From: Hadesarchaea archaeon
GTDB taxonomy: Archaea; Hadarchaeota; Hadarchaeia; Hadarchaeales; WYZ-LMO6
Assembly (NCBI GenBank): GCA_029259185.1
Contig: JAPDJF010000024.1
Coordinates: 1 to 41,151 of the forward strand
Length of the DNA: 41,151 bases
Reading direction: 5' to 3'
This document shows, piece after piece, positions 3,873 through 36,069 of the stretch (its first letter is position 1; each line of letters begins with the position of its first letter). Below the pieces are notes generated by a model. The model saw only the letters and a program-made list of their open reading frames with translations, did not search any database and had not been told where the DNA came from. Position numbers and translations under genes: made by a program.

Positions 3873-4295
3873 GTGCAACTTTATAAATTTCCCGTACGAG
3901 ATCTTCTCAGAAGGTTTATGCCGAAGAGATCCAAGCGTGTCTCGAATATTCAACGCCAGCTGGAGATAACCCAAAGGGAACTCCGTCACCTCTCAGACTT
4001 CGAATGGAGTTACACGAAACGTTTGTGGAGATTCAGCTTCGCCTCTTGGATTTTCGGAATATCCTGTTTCTTCTTCACCGTTGTCCTATATGACCCATCC
4101 CTGATATCCGAGGTTCCGCTAGCATATCCGATCCTGATACTCGCTATCGCCGCGCCGCTCGTGATAGTCTTGCTCCTCATAGGAAGACTGGATCGAAAGG
4201 TAAGGAACTTGGAGCGAAATAGGAGGATACTGTTAGCCCGGTATGAAAAAGCACTCATCGACCACGCGAGTGAACTCATGGAGGAGGAGCACTAA
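3873..4295 (+). CDS. small membrane protein, two TM segments
   Basis: 140 aa; basic N-terminus, two hydrophobic helices, charged C-terminus. Confidence 0.6.
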   Translation: MQLYKFPVRDLLRRFMPKRSKRVSNIQRQLEITQRELRHLSDFEWSYTKRLWRFSFASWIFGISCFFFTVVLYDPSLISEVPLAYPILILAIAAPLVIVLLLIGRLDRKVRNLERNRRILLARYEKALIDHASELMEEEH

Positions 4296-4999
4296 CCGGA
4301 TTTCACCAGTTTTTCGGCTAGCTTCATTATCGCCTTTGAGGCTGAGGACTTCGGATAAGCTTCAAGCACCGGTTCGCCCTTCCTCCAGGCTTTTCTCACA
4401 TTGATGTCCTCGGGTATCTCTCCAAGCAACGGGAGATTCAACAGACGTTTCACCTCGGCACTGGGGAACTCGAATTCCTCCCCCAGCACCCTGTTCACGA
4501 TTATCCCAGTAGGTGTGAAGCCCAAGAACTCCGCCATCACCCTGGTCCTCATCATGTTCGAAATCGAAGTGGTTTCTGGGAGGGTAACCAACACCACCTC
4601 TTCACCGGCTCGGAGTGCTGCCACCGTTTCCTTCCTGAGCCCACCGGGAGCGTCTATGATGAGAAAATCTACTCTGGCATCCAAGGTACTCAGTACGTGG
4701 GGGAGCTTGAAGGGATTCACTTTTTTCGCATGCTCAAGAACGACGCTGGCGGGTGCAATCCGGAGCCCATGGGGCCCCGAGTAAATCGCATCGCTCAGGG
4801 GGATCTCACCCGCGAGCACATCGTTTAGGGTATAGGGTACTTTTTCGAGCTTGAAGAGGGGGCCCAAGTTGGGGGTCGTTAAACTGGCATCGACTAACAC
4901 CGTGGATTTCCCCATCTTGGCGAGCGCGATACCCACGTTCGCCACCAAGGTAGTACGCCCCACCCCCCCCTTGCCCGAAGCCAAAACGATTCGACGCAT
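4292..4999 (-). CDS. MinD-like protein, probable ATPase-impaired paralogue
   Basis: SGKGGVGRTTLVANVG and VLVDASLTTPNLGPLF; MinD fold clear, active-site residues altered. Confidence 0.88.
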   Translation of the reverse strand: MRRIVLASGKGGVGRTTLVANVGIALAKMGKSTVLVDASLTTPNLGPLFKLEKVPYTLNDVLAGEIPLSDAIYSGPHGLRIAPASVVLEHAKKVNPFKLPHVLSTLDARVDFLIIDAPGGLRKETVAALRAGEEVVLVTLPETTSISNMMRTRVMAEFLGFTPTGIIVNRVLGEEFEFPSAEVKRLLNLPLLGEIPEDINVRKAWRKGEPVLEAYPKSSASKAIMKLAEKLVKSG

Positions 5000-5040
5000 T
5001 TAATAGTTTTGTATTCACGTGTATTTTTACCCGCCGTGCT

Positions 5041-5212
5041 TTGCACAAAAATATCGCAAAACCTAAAAATGGGTTCCAGCGAGGATCAGGCGCATCTTAC
5101 ACCCGATGCCCCACCACCGACTGTCGAGGTGCATCGAGTACAAAGGCTCTCTTGGAGGGGATCCCGAGCCTCCAAGCACAAAAATTGGTCTCAGGGGCTA
5201 ATTTTTGTGCAA
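5041..5212 (+). ncRNA. candidate structured RNA/repeat, copy A
   Basis: Shares 5' block GCACAAAAATATcGCAAAA and ~55-nt 3' block with copy B at 22763-22899; perfect 12-nt inverted ends TTGCACAAAAAT/ATTTTTGTGCAA; internal hairpins. Confidence 0.6.
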
Positions 5213-5253
5213 AGCCTCCCCGCCGATAGAATTTAAATCTCCCCTTCTAGAGT

Positions 5254-6395: not shown

Positions 6396-8711
6396 ATGGG
6401 AAGAGCCGTGGGGAAGAAAAAGAGGGAAGTTACCGGTGAGAGAAAGGATGTGAAGAGGATCCTGAAAGTCAAAGCTGAACTCTCTGGAAATGCTGAAGGA
6501 TTCCTCTCCGAAATACTGGGAGACGTCCCACCCGAGGTATCCACACGTGGTAAGGGAGTCGAACCCAGCGAAGAGGTATCCAAGGAAGGTGGAGAAGCTA
6601 CTGTATCAGCGGTGACCGCTCAGGTTCTGTTCGCGCCCAGTCCAGAGGGTGAGGTAGAAGTTGAAAGGGTGCTCGACCAGTACAGCATGACTCAGATCGT
6701 GAAAATCCGTGGAGGAGCGTTGCCATTATACAGGGTCAAAATGCCCGAGCTGACGGACGAAGAGAAGGAAATCCTCACCAAATGCAAGAAGAGGGCCGTC
6801 GAGGAGATCAAGATAGACCCCCAGAGTATTCCAGACCCCGCCGAAAGACGAAGGATATTCATGCAGGAGCTCGTGAAAATAGTGGAGCGGGAGACGAGGG
6901 GGATGCGTCTTCCCCAAGGTCGCATAAAAGAACTCTCCGACGCGGCCTTTCATGACATGATAGGCTACGGTCCGCTTGACTCCCTGATAGCAGACGACAA
7001 GCTTGAAGATATCTTGGTGATAGGGGTGAACAAACCCGTGTACGTCTACCACAGCAAATATGGCATGTGCGTTACCAACATCTCTTTCAAGAATGAAGAT
7101 ACAATCAGGTACTTCATCGATAAAATGGCTAGATTGGTGGGTCGGAGGATCGACCATCAAATGCCCCTGCTCGATGCTAGGTTACCCGACGGGAGTAGGA
7201 TAAACGCTACCATATCCCCCGTATCGCTCGATGGTCCCACCTTATCGATAAGGAAATTCAGAAAAGACCCTCTGACGATAATAGACCTCCTGAACCTGAA
7301 CACCCTATCAACCGATATCGCGGCTTTCCTTTGGCTGATAGTGCATGGCTTGGACGTCAAGCCCGCCAACATTCTGTTTTCGGGTGGTACGGGAAGTGGG
7401 AAAACCACGATGCTGAATTCCGCGACCACCTTCGTACCCGCGTACGAGCGCATAATATCCATCGAGGACACTGCGGAGCTCCAGCTTCCTCACCAACACT
7501 GGATAAGACTCGAAACACGCCCACCGAACATCGAAGGGAAGGGAGAGATAACAATGGACGACTTGGTAAAGAACGCTCTCCGCATGCGACCGGATCGGAT
7601 AGTGGTGGGTGAGGTTCGCGGATCGGAGGCCAGGACCATGTTCACGGCGATGAACACCGGACACGACGGGGCGGTGGGGGGCGAGACTTCGGTCCTGCTG
7701 GCAGGGGGGGAATGGGAGCCGATGGGGGATCTCTGCGAAAAGTTCTTTGACGGGTGTGCGGAAACTTACCCCAACGGTATGGAATACGTAAGGGTCCCGC
7801 CCAAGTATCTGTTCAACGTGATCTCTTTCGACGAAAAGTTGAATCCTCATGCCAATCCCGTACAGAGGGTGTGGCGGAGGAAGATCGGCCCCGGAGAAAG
7901 ACTCCTCAAGATACGCGTGCGCTCGGGCAAAGAGATCACCCTAACCGAGGATCACCCTGTGTTCATCCTAGCGGGGAACGATGTACGCAGGAAAGAAGCC
8001 GGGAGGGTAACACCGGGAGATCGAATAATGACTACCGCCCCCACCCTCCCGGTTCCGGGCGTGCGGGAGATCGATGCTCGGAAGTTCGAATCAACGAGCC
8101 CCCGCCTTCTCGCTAGCCCCGGTGTGGGTTGGGAGGAAGTAACGGGAATAGAGAGGGAAGAGAGCTCTGGATACGTGTACGATCTAACGGTGGAGAGAAA
8201 CCATAATTACGTGGCAAACGGTTTCGTGGTCTCCAATTGCATGGGAACCCTGCATGCCAATAGTGCCGTCGAGACCATCGCCCGACTGACGGAGGCTCCT
8301 ATGAGTGTGCCCCCGATAATGATCCCCGCCCTCGATGTGATCGTGATGTTGCAGAGAATATACCACAGGCAGAAGGGACACATCCGGAGGATAACAGAGA
8401 TCGCCGAGGTGACGGGCTTAGAAGGTGGGAAACCTCAGCTCAGCAGGATATTCAAATGGAATCCGAGAACGGATACGGTAGAACCCACGGGAGTCCCGAT
8501 AAAGCTCAAACATTCTCTCTCCGAGCTCAGTGGGAGAAGCGGGACGGAGATAGAAATAGAACTGAAAAGACGTGCAGCCGTGCTCGAGTGGATGAAGCGG
8601 AAAGGTGTGAGAAATGTTTTCGATGTGGGCGCTGTGATCCAAGAGTACTACCAGAATCCGGACAAGGTTCTAAAACGTGTCAAAGAGGAAGTTCGATTGA
8701 AAACCAGGTGA
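6396..8711 (+). CDS. klbA: type II/IV secretion / type IV pilus assembly ATPase (KlbA/TadA/GspE family) with intein
   Basis: Walker [39 protein letters not shown], His box NTGHDG...CMGTLHANS interrupted by an intein. Confidence 0.92.
7671..8237 (+). other. intein (189 aa mini-intein, Ala1)
   Basis: In-frame insertion between GHDG and [19 protein letters not shown]-terminal block, LTEDHPVF (TxxH block), [23 protein letters not shown]-terminal blocks; no homing endonuclease. Confidence 0.93.
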
Positions 8712-21039: not shown

Positions 21040-22680
21040 TCACTCGCTTTCGCCCGTCTCTCCCTCTTCCCCTCCACCCGGGGTCTTCGGGGATGGGAAG
21101 GATTTCTTGGCAGCCGCTATGACATCGTCGATACGTAAGATCATTATGGCAGCCTCGGTCGCCGATTTCACGGCTTGAGTTTTAACCCTAAGGGGCTCAT
21201 AGACTCCTATCTTCCGCATGTCGTCGATCTTCCCTTCAAATACGTTAATCCCATAATACTTCCCGTCCGGTTTTTCGTGCTTCGCCCTCAACTCCACGAG
21301 GACATCCACGCTGTCCATCCCTGCATTTTCCGCTAAGGTCTTGGGTATGACTTCCACCGCATCCGCAAAAGCTTTTATCGCTAGGGCTTCTCTCCCACCC
21401 ACGGTATCCGCATAGTCCCTTATCCTCTTAGCCAACGCCATTTCTGGAGCCCCTCCACCGCAGAGGTACTTGTTATCCTCAATTGCCGCCGCGACCACAC
21501 CCAAAGCATCATTTAATCCCCTTTCGATCTCATCCGTCACATGCTCCGATCCCCCACGGACTAATACCCCAACAGCTTTCGGGTTCTCACACTCTTGGAC
21601 GAATATGAACTTCTTGTCTCCGATCTTTCTCTCTTCCACCATGCCAGCCTTGCCGAGTTCGCTTGAGCTGAGATCGTCTAGATTCGTAACGACCTTTCCC
21701 CCGGTCGCACGGGCGAGCTTCTCCATGTCCGATTTCTTCACCCTCCTAGCCGCTAAGATTCCGGCTTTCGCGAGGTAGTGCTGGGCTATGTCGTCTATTC
21801 CTTTTTGACAGAAGACTACATTGGCTCCACTCGAGACCACCTTTTCAACCATTCCTTTGAGCATCCTCTCCTCCTCATCCAGAAACGCCCGCAACTGCTC
21901 AGGTCTCGTTACCCTTATCTCAGCATCCGTCTCCGTCTTTTTGACCTCCAAGGGTGTGTCCAGCAAGGCTATCTTAGCGTTCTTTATTCGCTCGGGCATC
22001 CCCGGGTGAACCCTTTCCTTATCCAAGACGAGCCCACTTACGATCTCTGAATCCGCCACGCTTCCTCCAGCTTTTTTCTCGATGCCTATGTAGTCCAAGT
22101 CAACCCTATACCCGCCATCGAATTTGTCCACCACTTTCCTCACCGCCTCAACGGCTAGATTCGCAAGTTTTTCACGCGCGCCTTCCGACTTCTTTCCAGT
22201 CATTGAGGTTATGGCTATCTTCTGCAATTTCTCGGTATCTTCAATCGTCACCTCATCGGCTATTTCTTCCAAGATCTCCCTAGCCCTATCGGACGCTGCC
22301 CTATAGCCTGAAACGATGATCATGGGGTGAATCCCCTGGTCTAAAAGCTTCTCTGCTTGATGCAGGAGCGCACCAGCTATAACGACTGCCGTGGTTGTCC
22401 CGTCTTTAACCTCTTCATCCATCGTCTTCGCAACTTCTACCATCATCTTAGCCGCGGGGTGCTCGATATCCATCTCCTTGAGGATGGTGACCCCGTCGTT
22501 CGTGATGGTCACATCACCCAAGCTATCGACCAGCATCTTGTCCATCCCTCTGGGACCAAGCGTCGTTCTAACGGCCTCGGCTATTATCCTAGCCGCGCTT
22601 ATGTTCATACGTTTGGCATCTTTTCCTGCGAGCCTCGTCGCGCCTTCTGGCAATATCAAGATGGGTTTAGCTGTAGCCAT
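21040..22680 (-). CDS. thermosome subunit (group II chaperonin)
   Basis: [57 protein letters not shown]. Confidence 0.98.
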
Positions 22681-22762
22681 TCACGATCCCCAAAACCTAG
22701 TTCATAATCTGTGATGTGACATCTACCTTTTATGTTTTTCGGTGTCGGTGTCGGGGCGCCTC

Positions 22763-22899
22763 GCACAAAAATATGGCAAAAGCAAATGGATCCGAAAGGT
22801 CGTGGTTAGTTGGCCTCCAAGACGAGGATGGCTTTCGCCCCTTGAAGGGATCCCGAGCCCCCAAGCACGGAAATTGGCCTCAAGGCTATTTTTGTGCAA
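22763..22899 (+). ncRNA. candidate structured RNA/repeat, copy B
   Basis: GCACAAAAATATgGCAAAA at 22763-22781; 3' block GGGATCCCGAGCCCCCAAGCACGGAAATTGGCCTCAAGGCTATTTTTGTGCAA; terminal inverted GCACAAAAATA/TATTTTTGTGC. Confidence 0.6.
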
Positions 22900-22912
22900 G
22901 CTCAAGAGATGA

Positions 22913-24037
22913 GTGATGAGAAAAATTTCTAGGTGTAGGGTATGCGGGAGGGAAGGATCCGAGATCTCCAGCTCTCTCGGTGTTTGTGTGAATTGCATTC
23001 GCCATCGTTTCGAGGAGGCGGTACCTTACATAGAAGCGGCGCATGCGAGAGCGAGGCGACCACTCGGTCTTCCTCCTACCGTCCCTTCCAACCCGAAGGA
23101 TCCCCGGTGCGATGGATGCGGAAATTCGTGCCGGATACCGGAGGGAGGTCGGGGATACTGCGGGTTGGTGGAAAACGTGAACGGTGAACTCATCCGCGGG
23201 TACGGAACCTCTGAGCGAGGTTTGGTCACGTGTTATCTCGATCCCCTGCCAACCAACTGCGTACCTGCGGATTTTTGTGCTGGTTCGAGCGGTGCAGGGT
23301 ACCCGAAGTGGTGCAGGTCGCCCGCGGGGGATCTGGGTTACTTTAACTTGGCAGTATTCATCGGGAGCTGCACGTACGACTGTCTCTTTTGCCAGAACTT
23401 CACGTTCAAATCCATGCTCTCTGAAGGCGGCCCGACGATGAGGGCCTCCGAACTCGCTGAAAAGGTCGATGAGAGGGTCGGGTGTGTGTGTTATTTCGGG
23501 GGAGACCCCTCCAGTCAGATACCATTCGTGGTGAGCTCGGCTACCATAATGCGGAGAGCAGCTGAGGAGGAGAGGAGACTCCTTAGGGTGTGCTTGGAAA
23601 CGAACCTCAACATGAACCCTTCTCAGCTGGATGGGATCGCTGGGCTTTGTATGGAGAGTGGTGGGGGGATAAAGGTGGATCTGAAGTGTTGGTCAGATAA
23701 AATCCTGTACGCACTCTCAGGTGTGCGGACGAGGATCCCATACAAGAACTTCGAGAGACTCTCCAAAATGCATCGTGAGAGACCAGAGGTCCCCTTCCTC
23801 CGCGCCAGCACCCTGCTCGTGCCCGGGTACGTGGACGAGGATGAGATAAGATCCATAGCTTCATTCATAGCGGATCTAGATCCCACCATCCCGTACTCCC
23901 TACTCGCCTTCCACCCAACCCACTTGATGAGCGATATGCCCTACACGAAGAGGGAAGACGCTGAGAGATTTCTGCACATATGCTTACGTGAGGGTTTGGA
24001 GAGGGTGAGGGTGGGAAACCCTTGGTTGTTGAGGTAG
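22913..24037 (+). CDS. radical SAM protein (PflA-like, COG1313-type) with N-terminal Cys motifs
   Basis: CTYDCLFCQN (CX3CX2C), plus CRVCG..CVNC and CDGCGNSC..GYCG motifs. Confidence 0.88.
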   Translation: MMRKISRCRVCGREGSEISSSLGVCVNCIRHRFEEAVPYIEAAHARARRPLGLPPTVPSNPKDPRCDGCGNSCRIPEGGRGYCGLVENVNGELIRGYGTSERGLVTCYLDPLPTNCVPADFCAGSSGAGYPKWCRSPAGDLGYFNLAVFIGSCTYDCLFCQNFTFKSMLSEGGPTMRASELAEKVDERVGCVCYFGGDPSSQIPFVVSSATIMRRAAEEERRLLRVCLETNLNMNPSQLDGIAGLCMESGGGIKVDLKCWSDKILYALSGVRTRIPYKNFERLSKMHRERPEVPFLRASTLLVPGYVDEDEIRSIASFIADLDPTIPYSLLAFHPTHLMSDMPYTKREDAERFLHICLREGLERVRVGNPWLLR

Positions 24038-25245: not shown

Positions 25246-25611
25246 CATAGATGCACATGCGAGAGGAAAAACTCTACCCACCGGGGCAAGCGATATGAGG
25301 TGGTTGCGACTTTCGAGAACCGACGGGGGTTGAAAAAAGTGTTCGAGATGCTTAGGGCTGGCGAAGCCGATACCGTGATCGTTGCGTGGAAAGATTGCCT
25401 CACCCGCTTTGGCTTTGAGCATTTGAAAAATCACGCTGAGGATCTCGGCGTTCGAATAGAAGGGGTAAATGAACGAGAAGAACGAACTCCCCACGAGGAG
25501 TTAGTCGGAGATCTCCTCTCCGTTGTCGCCAGCTTCTCTGGCAGGCTCTACGGTATGGGTTCAAACAAAGCGAGAATGGTGGTGGAGAGTGTCAAGCGTG
25601 CAGTCCGTTAG
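25246..25611 (+). pseudogene. tnpA: IS607-type serine recombinase TnpA, 5'-truncated
   Basis: GKRYEVVATFENRRGLKKVFEMLRAGEADTVIVAWKDCLTRFGFEHLKNHAEDLGVRIEGV...EELVGDLLSVVASFSGRLYG matches the C-terminal half of IS607 TnpA; MerR-like HTH and catalytic Ser (ARVSS) segment absent; in-frame stop just upstream. Confidence 0.85.
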
Positions 25612-26956
25612 TTCGGCCCGATTTGTTACCCCGCCCTTGACCCGGCGAAAACAAGAGGTGCTAAAACAATTGCTCGACCGGTTCGCGGCCTCGGTGAACT
25701 TCTGCATTTGGAAGTGTCTTGAGCACAAGGTCACCTCTCGCGCCTCGCTGCACCGCGTTGCCTACGAGGAGTGGAAGTCGCGCTTCGATCTCGCTACTCA
25801 CTGGTTCCACTCGGCCGGGCAGGTCGCCACACAGATGCTCCGCTCATGGCGGAAGCTCTGCCGCAAAGGACGAGCTGATCCAAGCAGGCCACCTCGTTAC
25901 GAAGCTCGAACTATGCGCTTGGAGCTTTGGGGTGAGAGTAGCGTCTCTGACATCTGCCGTTTCCATGGGCACGCGGTTCAGATCCGCACGCGCAAGGACG
26001 AGCACCTCTGGCTTCCGCTGATCGTAACCGAGCACCACGAGTTTCGCTACCTCAAGGACTGGCGCGAGGGGAAGACGAGAGTTGGTGAGATCACCATCTC
26101 GACATTTAAAGACAGGGCGGACATCTTCGTGTCCTTCAAGCGCGAGGTAGAACCAAAGCTTGTGGGAGGCATCTGCGGAGTCGGCATCAACGAGCGGAGC
26201 GTCGATTTGACCGTCCTGAAGCCGAGCGAGCGGCCAAAACACACCAGCCTCGACGTTTCAAAGCTCCCAGCGATAAGGCACGCCTCCCAGCTCAAGCGGA
26301 AGTCGATTCAGCAAAAGCTCGATGCGCTGCCGCAGCGCCCCGTGCAGAAGCGGAGGCTTTGGGCGAAGTACTGGCGCAGGGAGCGAAATCGAACGAACCA
26401 GATCATGCACGTCGTCAGCAAGCGGATCTCCGAGATCGCCGAGCGCGAGCGCACCGCGTTTGCATTCGAAGGCATCGAGAAGATTCGAGAATCTATGCGC
26501 TCGAAGCGAAAGTCGAGGAACGGCAAAACCCTGCACAAGGACATGCGCAGGCGGCTCAACCAGTGGCCTTTCAGGAAGCTCCAGTTCTTCGTCGAGTACA
26601 AGGTGGCGCGACAAGGGTTGCCGACGGTAGAAGTAAGCAACTATCACAAGTCGAAGGACTGCCCGGTGTGTGGCCGTTACAATAGGCCGAATGGGCACGC
26701 CCACAGGTGTCAAACCTGTGGGTTCGAAGCCAGCCGCCACCTCGTGACGAGCTGGAATCTTCCCTGCTCCGACAGGGAAGAGAACCCAGCTAAGGATGGG
26801 GCGAGGCACGTCCCCGCCGACTGCTGGCAGATGCAACGGGTAGCGGAGGGGCTTGTAGCTCCTGAGAAGCTATCCGTGGAGCCAGAAAAAAATCCCGTGT
26901 CAGACTGGTGTAGTTTGATACGGGATTTTAGGACGGTCGTTAGTGCGAGGTTTTAG
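25598..26956 (+). CDS. tnpB: TnpB (IS607/IS605 OrfB family), catalytic residues apparently lost
   Basis: Zn finger CPVCGRYNRPNGHAHRCQTCGFEASRHLVTSWNL, AFEGIEKIRE, RRLNQWPFRKLQFFVEYKV. GTG at 25598 overlaps tnpA stop and is more plausible than 25523. Confidence 0.9.
   Translation: MQSVSSARFVTPPLTRRKQEVLKQLLDRFAASVNFCIWKCLEHKVTSRASLHRVAYEEWKSRFDLATHWFHSAGQVATQMLRSWRKLCRKGRADPSRPPRYEARTMRLELWGESSVSDICRFHGHAVQIRTRKDEHLWLPLIVTEHHEFRYLKDWREGKTRVGEITISTFKDRADIFVSFKREVEPKLVGGICGVGINERSVDLTVLKPSERPKHTSLDVSKLPAIRHASQLKRKSIQQKLDALPQRPVQKRRLWAKYWRRERNRTNQIMHVVSKRISEIAERERTAFAFEGIEKIRESMRSKRKSRNGKTLHKDMRRRLNQWPFRKLQFFVEYKVARQGLPTVEVSNYHKSKDCPVCGRYNRPNGHAHRCQTCGFEASRHLVTSWNLPCSDREENPAKDGARHVPADCWQMQRVAEGLVAPEKLSVEPEKNPVSDWCSLIRDFRTVVSARF
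26889..26929 (+). other. 18-bp RNA hairpin at 3' end of tnpB
   Basis: AAAATCCCGTGTCAGACT-GGTGT-AGTTTGATACGGGATTTT; 16 Watson-Crick pairs plus two G-U pairs in + strand RNA. Confidence 0.85.
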
Positions 26957-35981: not shown

Positions 35982-36069
35982 TGCGGCCGGCGGGATTCGA
36001 ACCCGCGCCACAGGCTCTCCTCCCGCTGGCTGGAGGGCCTGAGTCCTAACCAGGCTAGACTACGGCCGC
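35982..36069 (-). tRNA. tRNA-Gly(UCC), intron-containing
   Basis: Minus strand GCGGCCG TA GTCT AGCCTGGTTA GGAC T CAGGC CCTCCA [14-nt intron GCCAGCGGGAGGAG] A GCCTG TGGC GCGGG TTCGAAT CCCGC CGGCCGC A; BHB motif at exon/intron junctions; no encoded CCA. Anticodon by register is UCC with C33. Confidence 0.85.

What the first reader, a model, noticed from the sequence alone, without database searches (positions are those of the whole stretch)
22763..22899. Second copy (B) of the same element 17.7 kb away, with base-pair-preserving changes
Copy B has GCACAAAAATATGGCAAAA (18/19 identical to A) and GGGATCCCGAGCCCCCAAGCACGGAAATTGGCCTCAAGGCTATTTTTGTGCAA (close match to the A 3' block). Where A has AA pairing with UU in the local stem, B has GG, giving G-U pairs (GCACGGAAAU/AUUUUUGUGC). 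The apical stem changes G-U-C/G-G-C in A to G-C-C/G-G-C in B. Changes that preserve RNA pairing favour an RNA function over a DNA-only repeat. The middle section differs between copies, suggesting conserved ends and a variable core. Both copies face the same way and sit in divergent intergenic regions just upstream of a + strand gene (here the radical SAM gene at 22913). I know no named family with this consensus.
Basis: partly seen in the sequence, partly recalled or inferred. Interest (0 to 1): 0.8.

Follow-up and report, generated by a model that had tools for sequence, protein, structure and literature searches.

The report
Promoter-seeking mini-transposons from a TnpB element
The two repeats are stripped-down copies of a mobile DNA element that carries the gene for an RNA-guided DNA-cutting enzyme (TnpB, an ancestor-type relative of Cas12) and that lands at a fixed spot just upstream of the on-switches of genes in this archaeon, which is an unusual combination.

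Summary
Copies A (5037-5216) and B (22758-22901) are two of about 19 copies in this 1.27-Mb archaeal genome. Three are full length (1.12-1.15 kb). One of these, L008, has an intact gene for TnpB, an RNA-guided nuclease. A and B are different internal deletions of that element (MITE-like), which explains the conserved ends and variable core. The conserved 3' block is the element's right end. In TnpB elements this makes the guide-RNA scaffold, so an RNA reading is plausible, but the paired changes are one-sided and covariation is weak. Two things were not expected. (1) The element has terminal inverted repeats and a flush 9-bp target-site duplication (7 copies 9/9, copy A 8/9; 0 of 2000 permutations), unlike IS200/IS605 or IS607. 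(2) It inserts in fixed orientation exactly upstream of host BRE/TATA boxes: a matrix made from the target sites finds promoters of unrelated genes at -36/-34. No transposase with matching ends was found. The nearest precedents are Fanzors in eukaryotic cut-and-paste transposons and bacterial Mutator-like ISs that land upstream of sigma-A promoters. I found no report of both in an archaeon. The TTTN next to the duplication may also be the TnpB TAM (untested).

The parts
22758..22901 (+). Copy B: 144-bp non-autonomous (MITE-like) derivative of the tnpB transposon; same deletion type as L017 (87.5% identical) and L013
22758..22782 (+). Left end of B: inverted repeat GCCTCGCACAAAAATA plus relic of the tnpB promoter
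   Evidence: sequence
22783..22846 (+). Core of B: first codons of tnpB fused to its last codons (internal deletion)
22847..22901 (+). Right end of B: conserved RE block, predicted omega-RNA (reRNA) scaffold
22865..22897 (+). Terminal hairpin GCACGGAAATTGGCC/GGCTATTTTTGTGC of the right end; its 3' arm is the right inverted repeat
22881..22894 (+). Best + strand promoter-motif hit in the B region (CAAGGCTATTTTTG, 6.5), 35 nt before ATG 22916: the right end may now serve as TATA box of the radical SAM gene
22727..22740 (-). BRE/TATA of the thermosome gene (GAAAAACATAAAAG, score 9.1) faced by the left end of B; TTTTTC plus a 6-bp tandem duplication (GTGTCG) lie between
5037..5216 (+). Copy A: MITE-like derivative, 178 bp between the outermost flanking C/T
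5028..5036 (+). Left 9-bp target-site duplication of A (TACCCGCCG), preceded by TTTT
5217..5225 (+). Right 9-bp target-site duplication of A (TCCCCGCCG, 8/9)
5079..5147 (+). Remnant of tnpB inside A (74% identical over TnpB residues 277-299 of the query)
5158..5215 (+). Right end of A (RE block, predicted omega-RNA scaffold; hairpin 5176-5210)
4292..4999 (-). Host gene (MinD/ParA-like) whose promoter lies next to the left end of A
21040..22680 (-). Host gene (thermosome, Cpn60_TCP1) whose promoter lies next to the left end of B
22913..24037 (+). Radical SAM protein gene right behind the right end of B (ATG option 22916)

Best explanation
Copies A and B are non-autonomous deletion derivatives of a tnpB-carrying DNA transposon with terminal inverted repeats (CGCTTTGCACAAAAATA / TAATTTTTGTGCAAAGCC). 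SHOWN: full-length copies exist, one with an intact TnpB ORF; A and B keep both ends and lost most of tnpB; the family makes a flush 9-bp target-site duplication; in most copies (all 8 with a clean duplication) the left end faces a BRE/TATA-like motif at a fixed distance; MITE subfamilies have moved as such. INFERRED: a DDE-type transposase acting in trans cuts at the inverted repeats and inserts the element at 9-bp staggered cuts, docked on the TBP-TFB promoter complex. This makes insertion oriented and spares the promoter. Transcription from the element's own left-end promoter makes TnpB and a right-end guide RNA whose guide is the duplicated target plus flank. TnpB would then cut the emptied site, where TTTN next to the duplication is the likely TAM, so that repair from a filled copy restores the element. 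A and B probably have no TnpB role of their own, though they keep scaffold-like right ends; B's right end may have become the promoter of the radical SAM gene.
For: About 19 genomic copies. TnpB identity: NCBIfam guided_TnpB E 8e-50, above cut-off; Pfam Cas12f1-like_TNB; PDB hits to TnpB/Cas12f. Full-length L008 and 90-91% copies L016 and L018. The cores of A and B are tnpB fragments. TSD: 96 of 144 identities at the flush offset against 41.5 expected, 0 of 2000 permutations, no signal at other offsets. Target motif: 12-nt information 12.5 bits against a null maximum of 8.8, TTT at the fixed place in 7 of 8 clean sites, nothing on the right side. The target matrix finds promoters of 60 unrelated genes at -36/-34 (15 best hits in -40..-31 against about 3 in shuffles). 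The nearest left-side gene is on the minus strand, starting 28-90 nt from the left end, in 12 of 16 copies. MITE subfamily L002/3/4/6 is 96-99% identical at four loci, L004 with a perfect TSD. A second tnpB family with other inverted repeats shows TTTY + 8 nt + GTTCT at four sites.
Against: No transposase with matching ends was found: all exact matches to the terminal repeat tip are ends of this family; the one DDE_Tnp_1 gene is not flanked by the repeat; IS256 and MULE families are absent. Two Y1 TnpA remnants exist in the genome. Five to eight copies, B included, show no TSD. L002, L003 and L017 share an 18-nt left flank with unrelated right flanks, which simple transposition does not explain. 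RNA expression, TAM and guide use are not tested; covariation is weak. No empty site in a relative was seen.
Confidence: 0.8

Rival explanations
1. A and B are PATE-like remnants of an ordinary IS200/IS605 (IS1341-type) element mobilised by a Y1 transposase (peel and paste), and the inverted repeats and direct repeats are incidental.
For: TnpB relatives at 32-42% identity sit in ordinary IS605 elements with Y1 TnpA; Y1 remnants are present in the genome; the right end ends in a strong hairpin.
Against: A flush 9-bp duplication at one offset only, 0 of 2000 permutations, and 11-13 of 14 inverted-repeat matches at the very tips in 5 of 6 clean copies scanned. IS200/IS605 make no duplication. The comparison IS605 elements L171-L175 gave no TIR+TSD signal clearly above shuffles; L176 (unannotated) gave TIR 14/14 with 7/9 flanks at an unrelated repeat.
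Confidence: 0.1
2. The element is a regulatory or small-RNA gene family, kept for an RNA function in promoters.
For: Strong predicted folds; a conserved right-end block in all copies; position between divergent genes in A and B.
Against: The cores are broken tnpB, the ends are transposon ends, there is no Rfam match, and covariation is one-sided. Copies show transposition hallmarks, not conservation at orthologous loci: the element DNA is absent from 60 other genomes apart from two short hits at 76% identity, both within the tnpB coding part of the query.
Confidence: 0.07
3. The TTTN motif is only the TnpB TAM (selection for retention), and the TATA box beside it is a by-product of insertion in AT-rich intergenic DNA, not promoter targeting.
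For: TTT is the strongest part of the motif; TTTN is a common Cas12-type motif (general knowledge); it lies on the side expected of a TAM.
Against: Positions -12..-5 are informative on their own (0 of 20000 resamples from the same flanks), and the matrix locates promoters of other genes at the right distance.
Confidence: 0.12

Closest known systems
IS1341-type TnpB-only elements (IS200/IS605 family) and PATEs
   Same: Single tnpB gene, right-end block with hairpins directly behind tnpB, short derivatives by internal deletion (Haloquadratum PATEs, PMC3119063)
   Different: Those lack inverted repeats and target duplications (Bao and Jurka, PMC3627910); here both are present
Fanzor-carrying cut-and-paste transposons of eukaryotes (PMC3627910, PMC10711439)
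   Same: A TnpB-type nuclease inside a transposon with inverted repeats and target duplication; catalytic glutamate at the 'alternative' place (E-x6-C of the zinc finger: GEAYTSRTC)
   Different: Archaeal host, DLG not DPG in RuvC-I, protein relatives are IS605 TnpBs, no transposase encoded
Prokaryotic Mutator-like elements TnGBS/ISLre2/ISKra4 (PMC3942029)
   Same: Insertion at a fixed distance and in one orientation upstream of promoters, inverted repeats, short target duplication
   Different: Their targets are sigma-A promoters in bacteria; here BRE/TATA in an archaeon; no such transposase found
Ty3 retrotransposon (integrase-TFIIIB), mechanism only, cited through PMC3942029
   Same: Integration guided by a transcription initiation complex
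   Different: Unrelated element class; docking here is inference

Membership tests
TnpB (RNA-guided nuclease) element | TnpB protein above the curated cut-off in full-length copies | tested here: met
   L008: NF040570 170 bits against cut-off 100; PF07282; PDB TnpB hits
TnpB (RNA-guided nuclease) element | RuvC D-E-D residues | tested here: met
   D in AVDLG and D in NADLNG; canonical E replaced (IGDLKG), alternative E six residues before the first zinc-finger C (GEAYTSRTC); alignment, rule from PMC10711439; by sequence only
TnpB (RNA-guided nuclease) element | Right-end RNA (omega-RNA/reRNA) with a guide from the flank | not testable with these tools
   Position and fold fit; no RNA data
IS200/IS605 (incl. 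IS1341) | No target-site duplication, no terminal inverted repeats | tested here: not met
   9-bp flush duplication, 0 of 2000 permutations; inverted repeats
IS607 | Serine recombinase transposition without inverted repeats or duplication | tested here: not met
   Same duplication and inverted repeats
MITE | Short, no transposase, inverted repeats, target duplication, several near-identical copies | tested here: met
   A: TIR + 8/9 TSD; subfamily L002/3/4/6 96-99% identical. B lacks a recognisable TSD
Mutator-like (p-MULT) promoter-targeting elements | Mutator-like DDE transposase | tested here: not met
   PF00872 and PF10551 absent from the assembly, 94.9% complete; ISLre2/ISKra4 models not searched
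Mutator-like (p-MULT) promoter-targeting elements | Oriented insertion at fixed distance upstream of promoters | tested here: met
   (for BRE/TATA promoters, not sigma-A)

The most novel reading that the evidence does not exclude
An archaeal TnpB has been captured by a DDE-type transposon that integrates by docking on the TBP-TFB promoter complex. The BRE complement (TTTN) at the insertion site doubles as the TnpB TAM and the 9-bp target duplication as the guide's seed, so promoter targeting and RNA-guided homing share one address. It would be the prokaryotic counterpart of Fanzor transposons.
Probability: 0.35. Interest if true: 0.85.

Novelty: new variant of a known kind. Interest (0 to 1): 0.62.

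Why it matters
Prokaryotic TnpB nucleases are described from transposons that neither duplicate their target nor carry inverted repeats. A TnpB inside a target-duplicating transposon shows that the nuclease can pair with an unrelated transposition chemistry in prokaryotes too, as Fanzors do in eukaryotes. It also gives a clean prediction: the TAM lies beside the duplication and the guide begins with it. Promoter-targeted, oriented insertion was described for bacterial sigma-A promoters; an archaeal BRE/TATA version would suggest independent evolution of docking on the initiation machinery, and would explain why such elements sit in promoter regions and may donate promoters, as copy B seems to do.

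Tried and rejected
Rfam at gathering and relaxed thresholds: nothing credible in the element. Relatives by DNA in 60 other genomes: no copy of the element, only two short hits at 76% identity within the tnpB coding part. By protein in GTDB contigs only a 36% hit; viral contigs none. Closest TnpBs (45% in G022; 32-42% in haloarchaeal plasmids) are in ordinary IS605 elements or have no such ends, so empty sites could not be read. Y1 transposase as the mover: remnants only, and the duplication argues against it. DDE candidates PF01609, PF00872, PF10551: one unrelated remnant or none. The idea that the host TATA drives tnpB was dropped: the BRE lies on the element side, so that promoter points away from tnpB, and the left end carries its own BRE/TATA (GGAAAACTTAAAAT) before the tnpB ATG. 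An earlier reading of the duplication as 11 bp was replaced by 9 bp, because the outermost base on each side is mostly element-specific. R-scape was not available; pair counting gave weak support.

Full report
Observation. The 3' block has 19 real matches in the window's own 1.27-Mb archaeal genome, and the 22-nt core has 16 matches against 0 for the reversed control. Rfam gives nothing credible in the element.

What it is. Upstream of the block several copies carry the end of a TnpB gene. L008 (C1:38408-39560, minus strand) is the full element: 1153 bp between the GC ends, with one ORF of 369 codons, a guided_TnpB by NCBIfam well above cut-off, Pfam Cas12f1-like_TNB, and hits to TnpB and Cas12f structures. 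L016 and L018 are full-length but broken. The other copies with matched ends are deletions of this element. Copy A keeps a piece coding TnpB residues around 277-299 of the query; copy B fuses the first tnpB codons to the last ones and shares that junction with L017 (87.5% identical). L002, L003, L004 and L006 are a 300-bp subfamily, 96-99% identical, with an inverted tnpB piece. Non-autonomous copies have therefore moved in trans. This explains 'conserved ends, variable core'.

How it moves. The tips are inverted repeats: left (C/T)GCTTTGCACAAAAATA, right TAATTTTTGTGCAAAGC(C). Among 16 copies with both ends, the 9 nt outside the left tip equal the 9 nt outside the right tip in seven copies and 8/9 in copy A. 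The summed identity is 96/144 at the flush offset against 41.5 for permuted pairs (0 of 2000), and other offsets show nothing. IS200/IS605, IS1341 and IS607 make no such duplication (PMC3627910; PMC6188088 abstract), so I do not file it there although TnpB itself is of IS605 kind (relatives). The staggered 9-bp duplication implies a DDE-type transposase (inference from known transposition chemistry). I did not find it, and about 5% of the genome is missing.

Where it goes. Directly left of the duplication the clean sites read WATAWRTNTTTY (12.5 bits; null mean 4.3, maximum 8.8 in 20,000 resamples), and the right side shows no motif. In 12 of 16 copies the gene on that side is on the minus strand and starts 28-90 nt away (simple ORF calls). 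Read on that strand the motif is RAAANAYWTATW, that is BRE plus TATA. As an independent test, a matrix built from 12 sites (their 14 nt next to the duplication) was run over 120 nt around the starts of 60 other genes. Its mean score in the upstream region peaks at -36/-34, and 15 best hits fall at -40..-31 against about 3 in shuffled sequence. The element thus inserts flush with the BRE, left end towards the promoter. Bacterial Mutator-like elements do the like at sigma-A promoters, where end asymmetry sets the orientation (PMC3942029). A second tnpB family in this genome has other inverted repeats (GGTTCTGGTAAATATTCG) and TTTY + 8 nt before the tip at four sites, with partial duplications at two.

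RNA side. In ISDra2 the RNA bound by TnpB covers the end of tnpB and the right end and runs about 16 nt into the flank (PMC8612924). By position the conserved block is that scaffold. L008 and A fold with z -3.6 and -4.4, B with -1.7. Covariation is poor: 91.6% of cells pair, but only one pair changes on both sides. Many copies have GCGC for GTGC, an A-C mismatch in the terminal hairpin. So RNA function rests on homology to TnpB elements, not on covariation.

Working model. The left end carries a BRE/TATA (GGAAAACTTAAAAT) about 33 nt before the tnpB ATG (sequence). The guide would start at the duplicated target; an emptied site would read TTTN + 9 bp + flank, fit for TnpB cutting and repair from a filled copy, as proposed for ISDra2 (PMC8612924). 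In the filled site the left side matches the guide for 9-10 nt only and the right side lacks the TAM, so the element would be spared. This is inference. TTTN may be the TAM, the BRE, or both.

Copies A and B. A lies between the promoters of a MinD/ParA-like gene and a DUF515 gene and still has its duplication. B lies between the thermosome promoter (score 9.1) and the radical SAM gene. It has no recognisable duplication and a 6-bp tandem repeat left of the tip. The best + strand promoter hit there is in its own right end, 35 nt before the ATG at 22916, so B may have become that gene's promoter.

Open points. The mover is unknown. L002, L003 and L017 share up to 18 nt of left flank but not their right flanks. 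C33 (L144) joins a family-1 left end to a family-2 right end. No empty site was available. Literature searches of open-access papers found no prokaryotic TnpB element with inverted repeats and duplication and no BRE/TATA-targeting transposon; most subscription papers are not in that library.

Noticed in passing
L141 (C13:17191-17907), L142 (C24:15859-16155), L143 (C9:10984), L139 (C1:117306): A second tnpB family in the same genome with different inverted repeats (GGTTCTGGTAAATATTCG) and TTTY + 8 nt before the tip at four sites.
   Followed up: partly
L002, L003, L017 left flanks: Three copies at different loci share up to 18 nt of left flank (CTTTTCGAACCTTTACGC) but have unrelated right flanks; the right flank of L019 resembles it (GAACCTTAG). 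Not explained.
   Followed up: partly
L144 (C33:1790-2243): Chimera with the left end of family 1 and the right end of family 2.
   Followed up: no
window 25523-26956 (+): Another TnpB-like ORF (477 aa), 26% identical to the element's TnpB over 25997-26743; its ends were not examined.
   Followed up: no
window 6396-8711 (+): Type II/IV secretion ATPase gene with an intein splicing domain match.
   Followed up: no
window 35982-36069 (-): tRNA gene of 88 bases, longer than the 71-position model, possibly with an intron.
   Followed up: no
L015 and C32:2863 (L090): A copy of this family lies next to a sequence ATGCTGGCC..CCTCAGAC that recurs beside another left-end-like tip; perhaps a further mobile element.
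   Followed up: no
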